A stretch of DNA of 24,056 nt from Candidatus Schekmanbacteria bacterium (GTDB taxonomy: Bacteria > CSSED10-310 > JACPHN01): the NCBI GenBank assembly GCA_016188575.1, contig JACPHN010000127.1, positions 1-24,056 on the forward strand, written 5' to 3'. Under the pieces are notes generated by a model. It saw nothing but the letters and a program-made list of their open reading frames with translations, was not told where the DNA came from and did no database searches. Position 1 is the first letter of the stretch, and each line of letters opens with the position of its first letter. Shown piece after piece: positions 391 through 24,056 of the stretch. The translations under genes and the position numbers were made by a program.

Positions 391-3300
391 ATGATCCAGG
401 CGCTTGCTGCGCAACAAGACACGATCCCGAAACGACTGGGCCGCTTCGCCGTCGCGGAGTTTCTCGGGCGTGGCGGTATGGGCGAGGTCTTCCTCGTCCA
501 GGACGGGGATAGCGGCGCGACCTTTGCTCTCAAGTGGCTGCACCGCACCGAGGAGCGGCATGCGCTGCGCTTCCAGCGCGAGTTCCGCACGCTGCATCGG
601 CTGCGGCACCCAGGCGTGATCCGCGTGTACGAATGGGGTCTCGTCGCCGACCGACCGTTCTTCACCATGGACTTCGTGCGCGGCCGCAACCTCGGGGAGG
701 CGGTCGCCGTGGTCCGGGGCGGCACCGCGGTGCCCGGCACCGAAGCGATGGTTTGCGCCGTCGCGGCCCTGGTGGGCCGCATCCTGCAGCCGCTGGGCTA
801 CGTCCACGCCGAGGGCGTCGTACATCGCGACCTCAAGCCCTCCAACGTGCTGGTCGCGCCGTCCGGAGCGATCAGGCTCATGGATTTCGGCCTTGGCCTG
901 GACATGTCCGCGGACACGCGCTTGACGACGACAGGATTCACCATGGGTACGCCGGCCTACATGGCTCCAGAGCAGGCCATGGGCGAGCGCGTCGACTACC
1001 GTGCGGACCTCTACGCCTTCGGTGTGGTGCTCTTCGAGGCCGTTACCGGTCAGCTGCCGTTCGACGGCCAAAACGCGGTGCAAATCGCGATGAAGCACGT
1101 CAACGAGCTCCCCGTGCCGGCGCGCCGGCGCAACCGCGTCGTGCCGCAGGCGCTGTCCGAGCTGATTGCGGCGCTGTTGGAGAAGCAGGCGCACAACCGC
1201 CCCGCGGACGCTCTGGATGTCCTCGCCACGCTTACCGGCATTGTTGGCGCGGACCTGCTCGCGACCCTGGCGCCCGTGGCGTCGTTGCCGCCGCTGACAG
1301 TGAGCTCGTCGGCGCTGCTCCCCGAGGCGGAGACCGCCGCGACTGCCGCCGCCTCACCGGCCCTGGTCACCTCCCCGCTGCGGCGGCCCGGTGCGACCGG
1401 CCCCGGCGCCGCTTCGCCCACCGGCGCTGCCGACCTCGAGCTACAAACGACGTCCCTGGCACCCACGCGGCTGCCGCTGGTCACCGACAGTCGCTTCGTC
1501 GGTCGCGACGCGGAGCTCGCCGTCGCTCAGGAGCACCTCGAGAGCCTCCTCGCGGGGCAGTCCGGGCTGCTCTTGTGGGGCGGCGAATCCGGCTCCGGAA
1601 AAAGCCGGCTGCTCGCCGAGATCCGCAAGCGCGCGCTGTTTCGGCCGCTGCGCGTCGACCTCGCCGTGGCCGCCGTCAGCGACGCCGCGCCGCTTTCCGT
1701 GTTCGACGGGCTGCTCCGCGACGAGGCCGAGCGCCTCGAGAAGCTGCTGCGCAAGGGGGTTACCGAGCTGCCCGACCCGTGGAAGCGTTTGCTCCCCATC
1801 CTGGCCAAGGCGCATTACCGGCTGTATGAGGCCGCGCGGGCCTACGGCCTGCCCGAGCCGGTGCCGCTCGAATCCGAGCAGGAGCGGTTCCGCCTGCTCG
1901 ACGCGATCCGCGAGGCGATCATCGAGCTGGCCCGGGAACGGCCGCTACTGCTCTTGGTAGACGACCTGCAATGGGCGGACGAGCTGAGCGCCGGCGCCGT
2001 GGCCGTGATTTGCCGATCGATTCTTTCTGGTAGCGGGCGCGCGCGCTCCAATCAGGCCGGGTCGGCGGTCTTGGTCATCGGCTTCTACCGCCTCGGCGAG
2101 CTTCCGGAAGGCGGCGTCATCGAGTCGCTGCTGCAAGCGCTGCCGTCGCACTGCACCCGTGAGCTTTCCTGCCTGAGCGAGCCCGAGGGGCTGGCAATGC
2201 TCCGCTCCATGGTGCCGCGCATGGAGATCAGCGAACGGATGCTCGCGCGCATTCACCGCGCCGGGGGTGGTAACCCATTTTTTCTGGAGGAGATGTTGCG
2301 CGCCACCGTCAACGGGGAAAGCGACCTGGCGGCGTTCGGCGCCGAGCTGACGCCTCCGGTCATGGCGGCGGTGACCCCGCATTCGCGCGTGACGCCGCCC
2401 GAGCCGCCGGATGACGGCGCTGTTCCCGTTCCCCCCGCCGTCCGCCGCGCGCTGTCGGACCGCTTTCGGCGCCTTTCCCCTGGAATCCAGGAAATCGTGT
2501 CGCTCGCCTCGCTGCTCGGGCGCGAGCTTCAACTGTCGCTGCTGCTGGAGCTCGCCCGGCGCTCCAATGAACGTCTCCTCGATGACGTCGAGACCGCAAT
2601 CCACCAGGGAATCTTCGCGGAGTCTCGGCGGGACGGCCGCATCTGGCTCAGCTTTCGGCACGACAAGCTGCGCGAGGTGGTCGCGGCCCAGATTCCGGGA
2701 AGCCAGCGCCGGGCGCTCCACGGAGCGATCGCCGAAGTCCTTGAGGCGCACTGGAACGAGGCCGAGCACGGCGGCGCCGACTGCCCGACTCCCGCCGAAC
2801 ACGTGTTCCTGCTCGCTCACCACTTCGAACAGGCCGACAATCCGCGGCAGGCCGTCAAATACCTGCGCCAGGCCTGCACCATTGCGAAGGGCGCAACCGC
2901 TCAGGAGGAAGCTCTGGCCTACGCGCGCCGCGCCTACGAGGCGCTGCCGGACGATGCCGCGGAGGCGGAACGCGCCGAAGTGCTGGTGGAGCTCCTTGAT
3001 CTGCTCGGCCGCAGCGCCCGTTACCAGGAGGCGCTGAGTCTTAGCGAGCGCCTCCTGATCGGTGCCCGCCAGGGCGGTGACGAGGTCGCGCTGGCGCAGG
3101 CTCATCACGCCAGAGGCAAGCTGCTCATTCGCTCCGGGCGCCACGAAGAAGGGGTGAAGTCCTTCCTCGAAGGGATCGCCGTTCTCGGCGAGAGGCTGGC
3201 GCAGTCCCGCTCCGGGCTCGTGCTGCAGTTCGTCTCACGGCTGTTCACCGCGGCGATTCCGTTCGGCTACTACCGCCTCAGGAACCGCCTGCGCCGGCCC

Positions 3301-4578
3301 GAGCGCGTGCCGAGGTTGGCCGACCGGTCCGCCCCCTGCTGGCGGCGGACCGCCGTCCTGTTCGATCTCTACTACGAGATCTGCGAGAACTATTTCTTCT
3401 TCATGGTGCCGTATCACCTCCTCTTTTTCGGCATCGTGATCTGGCGCATGCTGTACCTCGGTGAAGCTCTCGGCAGCGCCTGGGAGCGCATCCTCGGCTA
3501 TTCGAGCTTTGCGGTCGCGCTGCTGGCGGTGCCGCACCCGAAGCACTTTGCGGCGAAACGCAACTTCCGGCGCGCCACGGAGCTCGCCTATCGCGCGGGG
3601 CTCGAGCTCGGCATCGCGCGGATCGCGGCGCTGCAGTCGTTCAGCTCGCTGCTGATCTCCGAATTCGACGCCGGCCGGGCCTCGGGAGCGCGAGCGCAGC
3701 AGGCCTTCGAGAAGCACGGTGACGTGTATTGGAGCATCCTGTCGCAGTGGTTCGTGGGGGAGAACATCTTTTTCCTGGGCGACTACGCGACGGCGGAGGA
3801 GATCTGGGAAGAGATGCGGGAACGGTCGCTCGCGGTGGGCGACGAGTCCTGCGCCTCCTTTGCCACGGCCCTCCTCAGCTTTGCGGCGGCCCACCGGTTC
3901 GACTTTCAGCGCGCGGCGTCGCTGGCGCAAGAGGCCCGCTTTCTCGCGCGCAACACGAGCAAGCCCGCGCTCGACGATATCCTCGCGCGCGTCGACGCGA
4001 TGGTGAAGGCGTCCAGCGGCGAGATCGAGGAGGCCATCGAGATCCTTCAGGCCGCTCACAAGCGCTCGTCGCCGTTACGCGTCTCCGCGTTTTTCGCCTC
4101 GGCGTTGCGCGCGGATCTGGCGGCGCTGTTGCTGGCCGACATGTTTCCCGCCGCGGCCCCACCCTGGGCCGACACCCGCGACCACGTGGCCCGGCGCTCG
4201 ACGTGCCGGCTCACCGCTGCCGCGAGCGCTCCTGATTCCCAGGCGGGACCGCGCGGCAGCGTTGCCTTCGGCCGCGTCCTGATCGAGGCGTTCCACCTCG
4301 CCAGAGGAATCCCGTTTCAGCGAGCCGTGACGCTCCGCGTCGTCGCCCGCTACAACGCCGCCAAGATGCGCCCGCGCCGCGCCCGCCGGCACTACAACCA
4401 GGCTCTGAAGCTGTTTGCGCGCTGCGGAGCGACCGTCGAGTTGGCCTGGACGCGGCTCGAGCTCGGCCGCTTTCTCGCCGGCAGTGCGCTCGACGTCAGG
4501 AAGGGCAAGGAGCTGCAGGAGGAGGCGGAGGAGGTGCTGTCGCGCGTGGGGCTGCGAGGGACGAGACCAGCGTGCTGA
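391..4578 (+). CDS. Large Ser/Thr protein kinase fused to an AAA/STAND-like ATPase with TPR-like C-terminus
   Basis: A 1395-residue multidomain signalling protein. The N-terminal Hanks-type kinase domain (about 19-275) has the glycine loop GRGGMG at 26-31, lysine K48, catalytic HRDLKPSN at 145-152, DFG at 165-167 and APE at 192-194, so it should be active. A Pro/Ala-rich linker (about 285-365) leads to an ATPase module with Walker A GESGSGKS at 398-405 and Walker B VDDLQWAD at 523-530, the LQWAD form typical of AAA_16-type predictors. The rest is helical and TPR-like, as in PknK-like or adenylate-cyclase-associated regulators. An unusually aromatic, hydrophobic stretch lies at about 1000-1050 and could touch a membrane. 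The ATG is preceded by GGAG with 8-nt spacing. Family knowledge suggests an ATP-gated sensor kinase; the ligand and substrates are unknown. No obvious partner gene is adjacent on this strand. Confidence 0.93.
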   Translation: MIQALAAQQDTIPKRLGRFAVAEFLGRGGMGEVFLVQDGDSGATFALKWLHRTEERHALRFQREFRTLHRLRHPGVIRVYEWGLVADRPFFTMDFVRGRNLGEAVAVVRGGTAVPGTEAMVCAVAALVGRILQPLGYVHAEGVVHRDLKPSNVLVAPSGAIRLMDFGLGLDMSADTRLTTTGFTMGTPAYMAPEQAMGERVDYRADLYAFGVVLFEAVTGQLPFDGQNAVQIAMKHVNELPVPARRRNRVVPQALSELIAALLEKQAHNRPADALDVLATLTGIVGADLLATLAPVASLPPLTVSSSALLPEAETAATAAASPALVTSPLRRPGATGPGAASPTGAADLELQTTSLAPTRLPLVTDSRFVGRDAELAVAQEHLESLLAGQSGLLLWGGESGSGKSRLLAEIRKRALFRPLRVDLAVAAVSDAAPLSVFDGLLRDEAERLEKLLRKGVTELPDPWKRLLPILAKAHYRLYEAARAYGLPEPVPLESEQERFRLLDAIREAIIELARERPLLLLVDDLQWADELSAGAVAVICRSILSGSGRARSNQAGSAVLVIGFYRLGELPEGGVIESLLQALPSHCTRELSCLSEPEGLAMLRSMVPRMEISERMLARIHRAGGGNPFFLEEMLRATVNGESDLAAFGAELTPPVMAAVTPHSRVTPPEPPDDGAVPVPPAVRRALSDRFRRLSPGIQEIVSLASLLGRELQLSLLLELARRSNERLLDDVETAIHQGIFAESRRDGRIWLSFRHDKLREVVAAQIPGSQRRALHGAIAEVLEAHWNEAEHGGADCPTPAEHVFLLAHHFEQADNPRQAVKYLRQACTIAKGATAQEEALAYARRAYEALPDDAAEAERAEVLVELLDLLGRSARYQEALSLSERLLIGARQGGDEVALAQAHHARGKLLIRSGRHEEGVKSFLEGIAVLGERLAQSRSGLVLQFVSRLFTAAIPFGYYRLRNRLRRPERVPRLADRSAPCWRRTAVLFDLYYEICENYFFFMVPYHLLFFGIVIWRMLYLGEALGSAWERILGYSSFAVALLAVPHPKHFAAKRNFRRATELAYRAGLELGIARIAALQSFSSLLISEFDAGRASGARAQQAFEKHGDVYWSILSQWFVGENIFFLGDYATAEEIWEEMRERSLAVGDESCASFATALLSFAAAHRFDFQRAASLAQEARFLARNTSKPALDDILARVDAMVKASSGEIEEAIEILQAAHKRSSPLRVSAFFASALRADLAALLLADMFPAAAPPWADTRDHVARRSTCRLTAAASAPDSQAGPRGSVAFGRVLIEAFHLARGIPFQRAVTLRVVARYNAAKMRPRRARRHYNQALKLFARCGATVELAWTRLELGRFLAGSALDVRKGKELQEEAEEVLSRVGLRGTRPAC

Positions 4579-14533: not shown

Positions 14534-16105
14534 TCACAGGCGCAAAACGCGGATCGATTTGCCCCGGTGCTCGATCTGTTGCGACGAACAGCGCTCCGCG
14601 AGCGGCGGGGCGGTCGAGCGCCGGTCGAACAGCAGCAGGGCGCCATGCTCGAGCCCGAGCCGCACCAGGTAGTCCGCGAGCTGATCCAGCCCCTCGGGCT
14701 GAGGGTCGGCCCGCTTGTCGCGCCAGACCTTGATCTCGAACGCCTCCCGCTGCTCACCGCCGGGGTGTCGCCAGCGGACGCACAGGTCCATACGCCCCGA
14801 GCCGACGGCATACTCCCGATCCACGGTCCCGCCGCCGTTGACGATGCGCTGCAGGAACCCGAAGAAGATCAGATGCGGCGCCGCTTCGGGGTACGGCTGC
14901 TGCCTGAGCAGCGGTTCGGCGTGTTGCCGCCAGAAGGCCTGGAATTCGTCGAGCAGCTTGGTCGTCAGCAACAAACCGTCCGCGCCCACGTACCAGACCG
15001 AACGCTGGGGCAGCGACTCCTGCACCGCGAACGCGAGCGCACGCGGGATGACCTCATGGTAGATGGGGTTGGCGATGCGCGGCGGCGCACCCGTGCGGCG
15101 CTCGATCAAGCCGAGGTCCTCGACGTAGGCGGCATCGTCGTCATAGCGGTCGAGGTCGGGCAGGTCGCCCGCAAGCACCGGCTCGATGACCCGGCGGACG
15201 CGCTCCTCGCGCAGCTTGTCCGCCAGGGAATCCAGGTGGGTGTCGCGGCGCAGGATCAAGGTGTCCTTGGCGGCCTCGACGTGGGCGCGCGTCACGGCCA
15301 CCGAGCGGTCCCGCACGTCATCCTCCACGACCTGCCGCGCCAGCGCGTTCACCAGCCACGGCTGGCCGCGCGTCAGCTCCCAGGCCAGGGAAAGCGCGTC
15401 GGGTTCGAACCGCTGTCCGGTCTCGGCGGTGTGCTGCACAAGCAACGCCGCAACCTCATCGGGAGTGAAGTTCGACAGCCTCAGAGAGCGCACCTTGACG
15501 TTGAACGGGGACGAGGTTCCCAACGAGGCGCTTTCAGGCCGTATGCGCACCTTGTAGTCCCGAACATCCCTCAGCCCGATCAGGCCGATCGACTGAGGAA
15601 AGCGATCCGGTCGCTCGCCGTATCCGGCGCGAAGCTGGCGCAGCACCGAAAGCAAGGTCTCGTCGAGCAGGGCGTCGATCTCGTCGAGGAACAAGACCAC
15701 GGGCAGCGGCGCCTTCGCGGCCCAGCGGGTCAGGTAGTGGATGAGGCGGGTTTCGGCTGGGACGCCGGCAAGCGCTTCGGGTGGCAGCGGCCGAAGGGCT
15801 TCGGGGAGGCGCTGCGCAGCGAATTCAACCGAGCTGAGAAGAGCCGCGATTCCACGATCGAGGTCGCCACCGGCGGGTTGCGCTGCCTCGCAGCTCGCCA
15901 GCACCGCGGCGTGGCGGCCCTCGGAGGTGAGCGCGCGGGCGAACGCCCGCAAGCAGGTGGTCTTGCCGCTTTGCCGTGGGGCGTGCACGACGAAATAGAG
16001 TTTCTGCACGATGAGCTCCCGGACCGATGGCAGACGATGCTCGGCCGGCAGCATGAAATGATCCTCGGGGTCACACGGTCCGGCGGTATTGAAAAAGCGA
16101 GGCAT
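14534..16105 (-). CDS. AAA ATPase with C-terminal PD-(D/E)XK nuclease-like domain
   Basis: 523 residues, intact. The N-terminal ATPase has a Walker A of the APRQSGKTT form (42-50; Ala replaces the usual first Gly, which I recall as common in AAA_35-like ATPases) and Walker B VVLFLDEID (136-144). A central helical region follows (REERVRRVIEPVLAGD). The C-terminus carries GSGRMDLCVRW and FEIKVWR, placing D440, E457 and K459 in a D...ExK arrangement expected of PD-(D/E)XK nucleases. I chose the ATG at 16105 because GGAG lies 8 nt upstream and the family usually begins MPRFFNTAGP; the open frame to 16228 is probably not translated. Such genes occur as multicopy accessory families of unknown biology; mobility, defence or genome maintenance are all possible. 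It follows a VapBC-like pair on the same strand. Confidence 0.88.
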   Translation of the reverse strand: MPRFFNTAGPCDPEDHFMLPAEHRLPSVRELIVQKLYFVVHAPRQSGKTTCLRAFARALTSEGRHAAVLASCEAAQPAGGDLDRGIAALLSSVEFAAQRLPEALRPLPPEALAGVPAETRLIHYLTRWAAKAPLPVVLFLDEIDALLDETLLSVLRQLRAGYGERPDRFPQSIGLIGLRDVRDYKVRIRPESASLGTSSPFNVKVRSLRLSNFTPDEVAALLVQHTAETGQRFEPDALSLAWELTRGQPWLVNALARQVVEDDVRDRSVAVTRAHVEAAKDTLILRRDTHLDSLADKLREERVRRVIEPVLAGDLPDLDRYDDDAAYVEDLGLIERRTGAPPRIANPIYHEVIPRALAFAVQESLPQRSVWYVGADGLLLTTKLLDEFQAFWRQHAEPLLRQQPYPEAAPHLIFFGFLQRIVNGGGTVDREYAVGSGRMDLCVRWRHPGGEQREAFEIKVWRDKRADPQPEGLDQLADYLVRLGLEHGALLLFDRRSTAPPLAERCSSQQIEHRGKSIRVLRL

Positions 16106-16214
16106 CGGCAGGTCTCCGGGCAACGGCTGCTGCACTCGAGCTTGGTGGAAGTCGTCGATTTCGGGAATGAAATGAGCCAAAGTGAGCATTACGTTACGCG
16201 ACCAGGCGCCTGAC

Positions 16215-16236
16215 CACCGGGTGATCATCCCCGGTG
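16215..16236 (-). other. Hairpin between vapC-like and ATPase genes
   Basis: CACCGGG (16215-16221) and CCCGGTG (16230-16236) form a perfect 7-bp stem with an 8-nt loop. It sits in the ~180-bp gap between the toxin stop and the ATPase start. There is no T tract, so it is a weak terminator or attenuator candidate. Confidence 0.3.
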
Positions 16237-20513: not shown

Positions 20514-21209
20514 TTACTCGATGAATACCGTTTCCCACCACCGTATCGCCCACGAGCTGCCAGTATTCTCCAAGAAATAAAAGACGCCGGCACCTCCAAG
20601 GCCAGTGCGAAGGCGTACCATGTAAATTCCTGCCACTTTGCCATCTCGCGAGTATGCCGGAGAGCTCACATTCAGCGCTCCGACTGCGTTAGCATGGCGT
20701 GCCTGCCATGGATTCGGATCCTCGCTTCGAAAGTGCTTCTCCATGAATTCGTGTGACTCCAAAACAACCGCCAGCGGACCAGAAATGTCAGGAGGCGCCA
20801 CCCGACGCTTCTGGTCCTTGGTTTCCAGGCAAGCGTCGACAACTTCCCCTGGAATCACCTTGCCTTTGCCCACGACAATATCCTTTCCGGGTGTGGGAGT
20901 TGGCGATTTCAGTTCGGAGGCCAAGATATCGTCACCGTGGGCGATTCCCTCCATGTAAAGTTCCACGCGGTAATTCTCCTCCTCGCTCTCAGGGAGCTCG
21001 CATGCCGTCGTTTGATCGCTCATGACGATTGTCCGTCCAAGCTCCTTGATTTCCCAGGCCGAAATAATGTTAGAAATGGCAGAATCGGACAAGACTGCTC
21101 TAACGATGGCCATATCGTTTCTTGAAAGAGGCAGGAGATCGCTGGATGCATGAACGTGACCAAGAATAATAACAAAGAAGACCGAAGAAAAACGTACGAT
21201 ACCCTTCAT
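20514..21209 (-). CDS. Exported protein of unknown function; candidate RHS-toxin immunity protein
   Basis: 231 residues with a clear signal peptide (MKGIVRFSSVFFVIILGHVHA). The mature part contains DLLPLSRNDMAIVRAVLSDS, acidic stretches, and a C-terminal beta-rich portion ending GVFYFLENTGSSWAIRWWETV. I do not recognise the family. It starts 21 nt after the stop of the RHS toxin-tip gene on the same strand. Both genes are visibly more AT-rich than the surrounding DNA, as toxin tip/immunity pairs often are. Position therefore suggests an immunity protein, and its export would imply protection in the periplasm. It could also be an unrelated envelope protein. Confidence 0.8.
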   Translation of the reverse strand: MKGIVRFSSVFFVIILGHVHASSDLLPLSRNDMAIVRAVLSDSAISNIISAWEIKELGRTIVMSDQTTACELPESEEENYRVELYMEGIAHGDDILASELKSPTPTPGKDIVVGKGKVIPGEVVDACLETKDQKRRVAPPDISGPLAVVLESHEFMEKHFRSEDPNPWQARHANAVGALNVSSPAYSRDGKVAGIYMVRLRTGLGGAGVFYFLENTGSSWAIRWWETVFIE

Positions 21210-21230
21210 TTCGCCTGACCTAGAAAGTGC

Positions 21231-22628
21231 CTATCTAAACCTTCCGGGAAGGACGCACCCAATGCGGCAAGTATTGAAGAAGTCGGCTGGTTCATTCTCT
21301 ACAGTGTCCATCCTGGCCAGGTGCCCGCCCTCATGAAGGAGAATTGATGCCAACGTACACGGGCTCATTGGACCAGTGAATATGTCCCTGAAAAGATAGA
21401 TGTTTGTAAAGGCCATTGTCTTTTGTGCATGACCCTTTATGTCCTTTTCCGTAGTGCTTTCACGATCCTTTATCATGAAATACGGCGGCTGTCCATTGTT
21501 CTTGGTCCACTCCTCCATGTTCTTGAGCTGCGGGTTGTTGGCCTTGGCGAAGTACTCCTTGCAACTTATGCAGCTCGTGCTCGCCATCTGCTCCCGGAGC
21601 TCGGTCATCGCGTCGTGAATTCGCTCCTCGATCGCAGGGTCGGTGCCGGTCGGGATCGAATAGTACCCAGTGACATCAGTCAGGTTGATCGGATCGCCGC
21701 CGACGTACTCATACAGGTTTGGCTGGCCGCTCGCCCAGTACACCGGATCCCGACTCGTCCACCGCCCGACCTCCGGGTCATAATCCCGCGCCCCAAACCG
21801 CACGAACCCGGTATCCGGATCGTAGAGCCCACCCGCGAACCCGAACGGTTGGAAGCCCGGGTTCGTGTCTACGAGCACCCGGCCCCACGCGTCGTATTCC
21901 ATTCGCTGCGCCACCGCGCCGCTCGTCGTATCCACCACGAGTCTCACTGACCCGCGCTCGTCGCGGACAATCCCGTAGGTCACCCCGCCGCGCACCACCC
22001 CGCCCGGCACAAACCGACTTACGACGTTTCCGGTGCCATCAAGCTCCGCTGCGACCCGAAGCTGACTGCCGTAGAGCCATCCCGCGACCAGCACGCCATC
22101 CACGCGTTTGCCGACCCGCCGCCCGAGGCCGTCGACCACATAGTCGATCGCCCGCCCGTCCGGTAGCACAGCCGACCGCAGATTTCCGAGCGCGTCGTAG
22201 TCGTATGACGTTGTGCCGGCCCCATCCGTCCTCGCGGCCAACACGCCGTCCAGCGAATAGGCGTACGTCGCATCCAGTCGCGTTACCAGCCGGTCCTGAT
22301 CGTCGTAGCTCGCGATCGGCTCCGCCGCCGCCGGATCCTCGCTCAGGCGGTTGCCGTTAGCGTCGTAGGTGTAGTGAGCGATCTCCGCCCCGTTCTCCCA
22401 CACCCGCTCGAGCCGCCCTACGAGATCATAGGCGTAGCGATAGGTCGTGTCGGTGCCATCGACCCGTTCCACGCGCCCTCCGGTCGAATCCCTGGTCAGG
22501 GCCAGCCCGCCTGCCTGTGCGAGGAGGCCGTCCCCGTCGTACGCCATGTCCACCGTGTGGGCGCCGTTCACGGACTCCGCCGCCACCTGAAAGTCGTCGT
22601 TCCATGCCATTGTCACGCTGCCGCTCAC
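21231..22628 (-). CDS. RHS core with C-terminal HEGGH metallopeptidase toxin tip
   Basis: 465 residues from a GTG that has GGAG 7 nt upstream. YD repeats (for example YDALGNLRSAVLPDGRAIDY) run into the RHS-associated core: YDAWGRVLVDTNPGFQPFGF, then GLYDPDTGFVRFGARDYDPE, GRWTSRDP and NLYEYVGGDPINLTD. After TGYYS the sequence changes to a ~145-residue unique tip. It carries LLHEGGH (H432, E433, H436), a zinc-metallopeptidase HExxH motif, with E444 or E446 as possible third ligand, and six cysteines. RHS shells encapsulate and release such tips as effectors; this points to a peptidase toxin. The frame continues upstream without shift to a TGA at 22716-22718, so this is probably the 3' part of one larger gene, possibly re-initiated at this GTG. 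Confidence 0.88.
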   Translation of the reverse strand: MSGSVTMAWNDDFQVAAESVNGAHTVDMAYDGDGLLAQAGGLALTRDSTGGRVERVDGTDTTYRYAYDLVGRLERVWENGAEIAHYTYDANGNRLSEDPAAAEPIASYDDQDRLVTRLDATYAYSLDGVLAARTDGAGTTSYDYDALGNLRSAVLPDGRAIDYVVDGLGRRVGKRVDGVLVAGWLYGSQLRVAAELDGTGNVVSRFVPGGVVRGGVTYGIVRDERGSVRLVVDTTSGAVAQRMEYDAWGRVLVDTNPGFQPFGFAGGLYDPDTGFVRFGARDYDPEVGRWTSRDPVYWASGQPNLYEYVGGDPINLTDVTGYYSIPTGTDPAIEERIHDAMTELREQMASTSCISCKEYFAKANNPQLKNMEEWTKNNGQPPYFMIKDRESTTEKDIKGHAQKTMAFTNIYLFRDIFTGPMSPCTLASILLHEGGHLARMDTVENEPADFFNTCRIGCVLPGRFR

Positions 22629-22715
22629 TGTGCCGCTCCAAGTCGTACCGGTCGGGAGCGCGCCATCGGAAGAAAACGCCAGCAGCTCGCCCGCCGGCCC
22701 GTCCAGCGTGCAAGG

Positions 22716-24056
22716 TCACTCGCCTGGACACGTGCCGTAGCCGAAATGCAGCGTGCCGTCCGGCGTGGCGATCTCCGTCAGCCGGCCGCTGCCGGAGCTG
22801 TAGGAGCGCGTGATCGCGCCACCGCCCGGGAGGGTGATGGTCTTGACCTGGCGATCCGCGTTGTACGTCGCGTGCGCGTCGAAGGCGCCCGCCGTGTAGC
22901 CCGCGAGGTCCGGCGGGGAGTAGCGGTCGACGAGATCCACCTCGTTGAAGTCGAGCTCGTGCGCCGGCCGACCGGGCGGAGTAATGGATCTCAGGTTGCC
23001 GCTGGCGTCGTAGGAAAAGGCCACTATCTGTTCATCGGGTCGTGTCTCCGCTTGCGTTCGGCCAATGGCGTCTCCAGAAAATCTCGTCATTTGCAGCTCG
23101 GCATCGAGAGTGGTTTCGAGATACCGATCGGCGCCGTAGCCGAAGGTGGTCGTCCGCGCACCGCGCGCAAGTCCGGTCAACAGGCCGCGCGAGTCGTAGG
23201 TCAAGTCGGTCGACGCGCCCCGGGGAGGTGTCAGCCGGCTCGGATTCCCGGCCGCGTCTAGCGACATCACGCTTGTCCTGCCCATCTCCGTGGTCCGGGT
23301 GACGGTGTTTTCCACCGGGTCGAACGCGGTGGTAACGGTGCTGCCGTTTACGGTGTGAGCTACCGTGAGCGCGCCGCCGATTCCCGCCGGCGCGTCCACC
23401 GACACGGTCTCGACGCGCTCCAGACCGCCGGGGGTGCGGATCGTCGTCTGCCGGGCGACCGGCGCCAGGAGCCCCCAGCGCGGGTCGGGCTCCACCGTCA
23501 CCGCCATCTCCGTGCCGTCCGGGAACGTCACCGTCCGGCTCCCGCCGGCGCTCTCCACCCACGCCGTCCTGTTTCCCGCGCCGTCGGTAACGCTGCGCGC
23601 CGTCTCGCCCTCCCCGAGCTCCTCGACGGAGTGGATCGCGGTCCGTCCCAATGCCGTAGTTCCGGTGACGGTGCGGGCAGCGCCTTGCGATCCGGCCGCG
23701 AACGCCTTGCCACCGGTCACCGCATCCTCCCCGGACACGAGCAGCCCGAGATCGTCGTAGGCGTAGCTCGTTACGAAGTGCCGGGCGTTCTCGTACGTCT
23801 TCATCAACCCCGCGGCGTCGCCGTCGTAATAGGTCAGCTTGACGGTCTCGCCTTCGGGATTGCGGATTTCGGTGAGCCAGCCGGTGACGTCATCGGTGCT
23901 GAGCACCGTGCGCTGGCCGCCCGGCGCAACGAGCGCCGCCGGGCGACCGCCGGTGCGCTCGATGGTGACCGTGTTGCCGTGCGCGTCCGCCAGCGTCGTG
24001 AGGTCGCCGGCGCCGTCGTAACCGAAGCTGAGCTCGACGTTGCCGGTGACGCCGTC
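22716..24056 (-). CDS. RHS/YD-repeat protein, 5' part (continues beyond the window)
   Basis: The frame is open from the right edge (24056) to a TGA at 22716-22718, about 446 residues. It consists of RHS/YD repeats such as LSFGYDGAGDLTTLADAHGN, TYDSRGLLTGLARGARTT and FSYDASGNLRSITPPG, forming the shell wall of an RHS cocoon. The last residues are LHFGYGTCPGE before the stop. The same frame resumes immediately after the TGA and leads into the RHS core and toxin tip, so one point change separates the two halves. The true start, any secretion or signal domain, and a possible VgrG/PAAR partner are outside the window. It may be a pseudogene fragment or half of a split RHS gene. Confidence 0.85.
   Translation of the reverse strand, partial: DGVTGNVELSFGYDGAGDLTTLADAHGNTVTIERTGGRPAALVAPGGQRTVLSTDDVTGWLTEIRNPEGETVKLTYYDGDAAGLMKTYENARHFVTSYAYDDLGLLVSGEDAVTGGKAFAAGSQGAARTVTGTTALGRTAIHSVEELGEGETARSVTDGAGNRTAWVESAGGSRTVTFPDGTEMAVTVEPDPRWGLLAPVARQTTIRTPGGLERVETVSVDAPAGIGGALTVAHTVNGSTVTTAFDPVENTVTRTTEMGRTSVMSLDAAGNPSRLTPPRGASTDLTYDSRGLLTGLARGARTTTFGYGADRYLETTLDAELQMTRFSGDAIGRTQAETRPDEQIVAFSYDASGNLRSITPPGRPAHELDFNEVDLVDRYSPPDLAGYTAGAFDAHATYNADRQVKTITLPGGGAITRSYSSGSGRLTEIATPDGTLHFGYGTCPGE

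What the first reader, a model, noticed from the sequence alone, without database searches (positions are those of the whole stretch)
20514..22628. RHS metallopeptidase effector and exported candidate immunity protein
The RHS core ends in a unique AT-richer tip with LLHEGGH and downstream glutamates, followed after 21 nt by a signal-peptide protein of unknown family. A zinc-peptidase toxin with a periplasmic immunity partner could be a new toxin-immunity pair.
Basis: partly seen in the sequence, partly recalled or inferred. Interest (0 to 1): 0.75.

Follow-up and report, generated by a model that had tools for sequence, protein, structure and literature searches.

The report
RHS zinc-peptidase tip with exported neighbour
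A repeat-built bacterial surface protein ends in a probable zinc-peptidase warhead of a previously unnamed family, followed by an exported protein that probably protects its maker; this is a new example of a known kind of bacterial weapon, and as assembled here its gene is interrupted by a stop codon.

Summary
The RHS core ends at 21666 (- strand). A 144-aa tip (21234-21665) carries HEGGH at residues 432-436 of the 465-aa frame and is AT-richer (52% GC against 67% in the core). After 21 nt comes a 231-aa exported protein (20514-21209). The HExxH is not chance: two more RHS tips in the same genome (about 30% identical, on an unlike RHS core) and two free-standing proteins in Acidobacteriota MAGs keep HExGHL[AS]RxD and a C-terminal Cys pair. 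No Pfam, NCBIfam, PADLOC or PHROGs family names the tip. Profile comparison and a middling model point to a zincin. The neighbour is an orphan; it does not co-occur by homology, but the second complete locus has an unrelated exported protein in the same slot. Best reading: a new family of RHS metallopeptidase toxin acting in the cell envelope, with a periplasmic immunity partner; it works like Tpe1/VgrG2b and Tox-MPTases. Cautions: an in-frame TGA (22716-22718) splits the RHS gene, the N-terminus lies off the contig, no T6SS sheath gene was found, and toxicity and immunity are untested.

The parts
21666..24056 (-). RHS/YD-repeat shell and RHS core domain (core 21666-21896); N-terminus lies beyond the contig end; one in-frame stop inside
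   Evidence: PF05593, PF25023, TIGR03696; the window is the whole contig C241
22716..22718 (-). in-frame TGA that splits the RHS frame
   Evidence: translation and paralogue alignment
21234..21665 (-). C-terminal tip, 144 aa, candidate zinc metallopeptidase toxin domain; low GC; invariant HExGHLxRxD and C-terminal Cys pair
   Evidence: homologues and alignment; composition
21321..21335 (-). HEGGH motif (residues 432-436 of the 465-aa frame)
20514..21209 (-). P0002, 231 aa, signal peptide (probable cut after HVHA), two Cys in the mature part; candidate periplasmic immunity protein, no known family
21210..21230 (-). 21-nt gap between tip stop and P0002 start, with a weak SD-like stretch before the ATG

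Best explanation
An RHS polymorphic-toxin module. The RHS shell (probably exported by the Sec pathway, since intact RHS proteins of this genome carry signal peptides and no T6SS sheath gene was found) would carry and release a small C-terminal zinc metallopeptidase that acts in the periplasm or envelope of a competing bacterium. The downstream exported protein P0002 would bind and block the tip in the producer's own periplasm. Shown: RHS core, polymorphic tip, conserved HExxH family, exported adjacent orphan protein. Inferred: zinc binding, proteolysis, toxicity, envelope site of action, immunity by P0002, route of delivery.
For: Same tip family on a different RHS core (window core against L002 core 41% identical) and the same core (71-78%) carrying quite different tips elsewhere in the genome: the hallmark of tip swapping. 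HExGHL[AS]RxD, CxxYF and a C-terminal Cys pair invariant in five members; dN/dS about 0.14-0.18 between the two free-standing homologues. Profile-profile link (hhalign 95%, 91 columns) to a membrane-anchored HExxH family that scores near threshold to M48 and M56. Both complete loci have an exported protein immediately downstream. In-genome controls: TseH-like tip followed by exported Imm58; four eCIS_core-type HExxH tips followed by signal-peptide or lipobox proteins; nuclease-like tips followed by non-exported proteins. The tip's Acidobacteriota homologues are themselves exported, which fits an enzyme working outside the cytoplasm.
Against: RHS frame broken by an in-frame TGA upstream of the tip; the C62 copy is also frame-broken inside its core. 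Neighbour does not recur by homology. Free-standing homologues have no partner gene, so the domain need not be toxic. Window tip model pLDDT 38; homologue model pLDDT 60, no significant Foldseek match.
Confidence: 0.58

Rival explanations
1. A displaced or decayed RHS cassette: the tip and P0002 are an orphan or silent toxin-immunity cassette behind an interrupted RHS gene, kept as a recombination reservoir or for immunity only, not made as a full toxin. Compatible with the tip being an enzyme.
For: In-frame TGA at 22716-22718; the C62 homologue is frame-broken in its core; 27 RHS core ends in the genome, several with short frames such as C231, C16, C13.
Against: Tip and P0002 frames are themselves open; the assembly is fragmented (275 contigs) and stops in repeat-rich genes can be assembly errors; the C186 homologue is in an open 615-aa frame.
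Confidence: 0.3
2. The tip is a processing or releasing peptidase of the RHS protein, or an exported housekeeping peptidase domain captured by RHS, and not a toxin; P0002 is an unrelated or substrate protein.
For: Free-standing exported homologues without a partner in Acidobacteriota; PVC-metallopeptidases mostly serve as releasing peptidases (PMC3482391).
Against: The domain is at the extreme C-terminus with nothing left to release; it varies between paralogues sharing the core; exported proteins sit immediately downstream at both complete loci.
Confidence: 0.15
3. The effector is aimed at eukaryotes (such as predatory protists), and the exported neighbour is a second effector or chaperone rather than immunity.
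For: Most metallopeptidase toxin families listed in PMC3482391 have no immunity family named; P0002 has no known immunity family.
Against: Neighbour orientation, spacing and export match envelope immunity; other tips in this genome have recognised bacterial immunity families (Imm58; CdiI-like, sub-threshold).
Confidence: 0.08
4. HExxH does not mark an active peptidase: an inactive or other metal-binding fold.
For: Model quality low; third zinc ligand not identified (Asp at +5 or Glu at about +10).
Against: Motif invariant while the rest is about 30% identical; motif lies in a predicted helix; structural near-matches are mostly HExxH zinc proteins.
Confidence: 0.1

Closest known systems
Tox-MPTase1-5 (Zhang et al. 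2012, PMC3482391)
   Same: small zincin-like HExxH domains, C-terminal in RHS proteins, predicted toxins of polymorphic toxin systems
   Different: no Tox-MPTase model matches the tip at E up to 10; PMC3482391 lists no immunity family for them, whereas here an exported neighbour follows
Tpe1-Tpi1 / VgrG2b-PA0261 (PMC6899460)
   Same: HExxH metallopeptidase effector with a downstream small exported immunity protein; toxin active in the periplasm (shown there by experiment)
   Different: those are DUF4157/eCIS_core-type gluzincins on T6SS VgrG, PAAR or cargo; the window tip does not match eCIS_core, is on an RHS core, and no T6SS sheath gene was found; function untested here
eCIS_core (PF13699) RHS tips with lipoprotein-like neighbours in the same genome (L043, L046, L052, L055)
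   Same: HExxH tip on a closely related RHS core, exported neighbour
   Different: tip sequence not detectably related to the window family (hhalign probability 1.5%)
Acidobacteriota membrane-anchored HExxH family (A5) and M48/M56 peptidases
   Same: hhalign 95% over 91 columns; HExxH followed by an Asp at +5; C-terminal Cys pair
   Different: membrane proteins with a zinc-ribbon-like N-terminus, not RHS tips; Pfam M48/M56 scores near or below the cut-offs

Membership tests
RHS polymorphic toxin | RHS/YD repeats ending in the RHS core domain, then a variable tip | tested here: met
   TIGR03696 2.9e-20; cores 71-78% identical with different tips, same tip family on a 41% identical core
RHS polymorphic toxin | intact frame from N-terminal secretion domain to tip | tested here: not met
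   in-frame TGA at 22716-22718; N-terminus off contig. As assembled only; an assembly error is not excluded
RHS polymorphic toxin | adjacent immunity gene | tested here: inconclusive
   exported orphan 21 nt downstream; unrelated exported protein at the C62 locus; none before the C186 contig end
RHS polymorphic toxin | tip is toxic and neutralised by its neighbour | not testable with these tools
   needs expression
Zincin metallopeptidase (clan MA) | conserved HExxH on a helix | tested here: met
   invariant in five members; predicted helix in both (low-confidence) models
Zincin metallopeptidase (clan MA) | zincin fold | tested here: inconclusive
   homologue model pLDDT 60; best Z 6.9 (rmsd 3.7, 95 aligned) selecase, 5.5 (4.5, 113) Grifola zinc peptidase, 4.1 (4.8, 106) BlaR1; Foldseek E above 1
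Zincin metallopeptidase (clan MA) | third zinc ligand | tested here: inconclusive
   candidates Asp at +5 (invariant) and Glu of NE at about +10
Tox-MPTase1-5 / eCIS_core (Pfam) | score over the family cut-off | tested here: not met
   no such hit for any of five members at E up to 10; hhalign to an eCIS_core tip 1.5%
Tpe-Tpi effector-immunity | exported protein encoded directly downstream | tested here: met
   signal peptide in P0002 (h-region mean hydrophobicity 2.8, charge +2), 21 nt gap
Tpe-Tpi effector-immunity | T6SS delivery | tested here: not met
   no TssB/VipA (PF05591) in the 93.8% complete genome; positive control E. coli rang

The most novel reading that the evidence does not exclude
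A new clan of envelope-acting RHS zinc-peptidase toxins that arose from a free-standing exported peptidase of unknown role, repeatedly paired with unrelated exported inhibitors, in a bacterium without T6SS, implying a Sec-exported RHS delivery route to a rival's periplasm.
Probability: 0.25. Interest if true: 0.6.

Novelty: new member of a known kind. Interest (0 to 1): 0.42.

Why it matters
It adds an unnamed zinc-peptidase tip family to the polymorphic-toxin list, links it to free-standing exported proteins that may be its source, and comes from a genome with 27 RHS core ends in a sparsely sampled phylum, where tip class and exported or cytosolic neighbour can be compared side by side. If P0002 inhibits the tip, it is a new inhibitor of an envelope peptidase.

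Tried and rejected
Pfam, NCBIfam, PADLOC and PHROGs gave no family for tip or neighbour; the weak hits (DUF5329, CptIN, TraF 0.007 for P0002, CowN for P0003) are below cut-offs and were not used. The TraF hint was followed in plasmids: best E 0.5, 26%, rejected. Plasmids and viral contigs hold no relative of the tip. A single-sequence genome-contig scan found nothing; the three-row alignment found two loci. The Acidobacteriota phylum search gave many M48 proteins sharing only the motif; these were set aside and the 235-aa family kept. P0002 and P0003 show only a chance-like 17/68 match. The first AlphaFold model, of the window tip, was too poor for a fold search (pLDDT 38). Only window sequences and the search for related loci homologues were given to the folding tool, as its rule says, so the alignment was shallow. 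In the VIA list other rows (baculovirus shell, ChlB HExxH oxygenase, VC2308) warn against reading Z of 4-7 as proof. One call was a mistaken placeholder and returned an error.

Full report
What is there. On the minus strand the contig end (window 24056) opens inside an RHS gene. The RHS/YD repeats run to the RHS core domain (21666-21896; TIGR03696 2.9e-20, TEN_YD-shell 4.2e-22), then a 144-residue tip (21234-21665) with HEGGH at residues 432-436 of the 465-aa frame. After 21 nt a 231-aa protein, P0002, begins with a clear signal peptide (MKGIVRFSSVFFVIILGHVHA). Tip and P0002 are 52-53% GC, the RHS core 67%.

The 465-aa frame is not the whole gene. The same frame continues upstream of an in-frame TGA at 22716-22718 to the contig end; paralogues have no stop in the corresponding stretch. 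As assembled, shell and tip are therefore not one protein. This may be a true nonsense mutation or an assembly error in a repeat-rich gene; I cannot tell. The secretion domain lies off the contig.

The HExxH is real family conservation. In composition shuffles HExxH occurs in 0.7% of cases, so alone it is weak. But the same genome has two further RHS tips of this family: C186 (33% identity, E 9e-12) and C62 (31%, 4e-7). A profile scan of genomes of 84,980 species found two more, in Acidobacteriota MAGs (36% and 34%). These are not RHS tips but free-standing proteins of 193 and 161 aa; the first has a clear signal peptide, the second a hydrophobic start, and no partner gene follows on the same strand. 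All five keep C..YF, HExGHL[AS]RxD and a C-terminal Cys pair. The two free-standing ones show dN/dS of 0.14-0.18.

What fold. No Pfam, NCBIfam, PADLOC or PHROGs family reaches its cut-off. Profile comparison with a 235-aa membrane-anchored HExxH family from other Acidobacteriota genomes gives hhalign probability 95% over 91 columns; that family was itself picked up with the tip profile, so the figure is somewhat flattered. It scores 5e-4 to M48 and 1e-3 to M56 at best. AlphaFold on the window tip failed (pLDDT 38); on the free-standing homologue it reached pLDDT 60, pTM 0.59. Foldseek found nothing significant; the second look lists selecase (Z 6.9), a fungal zinc peptidase (5.5), BlaR1 (4.1), Pra1 and HtpX among nine rows. 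I read this as 'probably zincin, not proven'. The third ligand is open: the invariant Asp at +5, or the Glu of 'NE' near +10.

Polymorphic-toxin logic. The genome has 27 RHS core ends. The window's core is 71-78% identical to cores that carry quite different tips, while the same tip family sits on a core only 41% identical (C186). That is tip exchange. Some sister tips are recognisable: a TseH-like tip followed by exported Imm58 (PF25218 5e-17, PF15581 3e-8); four tips of one family (one member tested: eCIS_core 1.7e-12) followed by signal-peptide or lipobox proteins; and restriction-nuclease-like tips (sub-threshold PF18741) followed by proteins without a signal peptide. So tips of peptidase or hydrolase type go with exported neighbours in this genome. 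The classes were assigned after seeing the data and the numbers are small; it is a pattern, not a test.

The neighbour. P0002 is single-copy and has no relative in 59 other genomes, none at a significant score in the plasmid collection and none in the PDB. At the C62 locus the tip is followed, with a short overlap, by P0003, another exported orphan not related to P0002. At C186 no ORF follows before the contig end. Co-occurrence by homology therefore fails; co-occurrence of an exported protein holds in two of two loci where it can be seen. PMC6899460 notes that immunity proteins of T6SS toxins share little sequence with their orthologues.

How it would work. Intact RHS proteins of this genome begin with Sec-type signal peptides (C143, C154), and TssB/VipA is absent (E. 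coli control positive). I infer export by Sec, exposure at the surface, and release of the tip into a neighbour's envelope, where the peptidase damages periplasmic or membrane proteins, while P0002 guards the producer's periplasm. Motif, family, export signals and adjacency are shown; everything about activity, target, delivery and protection is inferred.

Compared with the known. It works like Tpe1-Tpi1/VgrG2b-PA0261 (periplasmic HExxH effector, exported immunity; PMC6899460) and sits where Tox-MPTase1-5 sit (RHS tips; PMC3482391), but matches neither family's model. I file it as a new member of the known kind 'RHS metallopeptidase toxin', with family status proposed and function untested.

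Noticed in passing
L043, L046, L052, L055 (genome contigs C216, C132, C172, C152): A second HExxH tip family (eCIS_core type, HELHHVEQY) on nearly the same RHS core, each followed by a lipoprotein-like or signal-peptide protein: a better-supported tip-immunity pair than the window's, in four copies.
   Followed up: partly
L047 (C42:100-4000): TseH-like RHS tip followed, 4 nt overlapping, by an exported Imm58 protein.
   Followed up: partly
L042 and L045 (C231, C15): Two near-identical Cys-rich tips of no known family, each followed by a membrane or signal-anchor protein.
   Followed up: no
L062 (C143): RHS protein (frame of 2671 aa, signal peptide) with a pretoxin HINT domain and unknown tip, followed by a non-exported protein.
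   Followed up: no
L065, L067, L068, L070, L073, L074, L081: An unnamed family of about 235 aa in Acidobacteriota: zinc-ribbon-like N-terminus, one membrane helix, HExxH domain near M48/M56, C-terminal Cys pair.
   Followed up: partly
window 391-4578 and 14534-16228: Large Ser/Thr kinase with AAA_16 and TPR, and a separate AAA_16 protein, near a TonB receptor and a TPR protein; no link to the RHS gene seen.
   Followed up: no
L003:1929-2067 (C62): The RHS frame of the second HExxH-tip homologue is also broken (frame change inside the core), so two of the three RHS genes of this tip family are interrupted in this assembly.
   Followed up: partly
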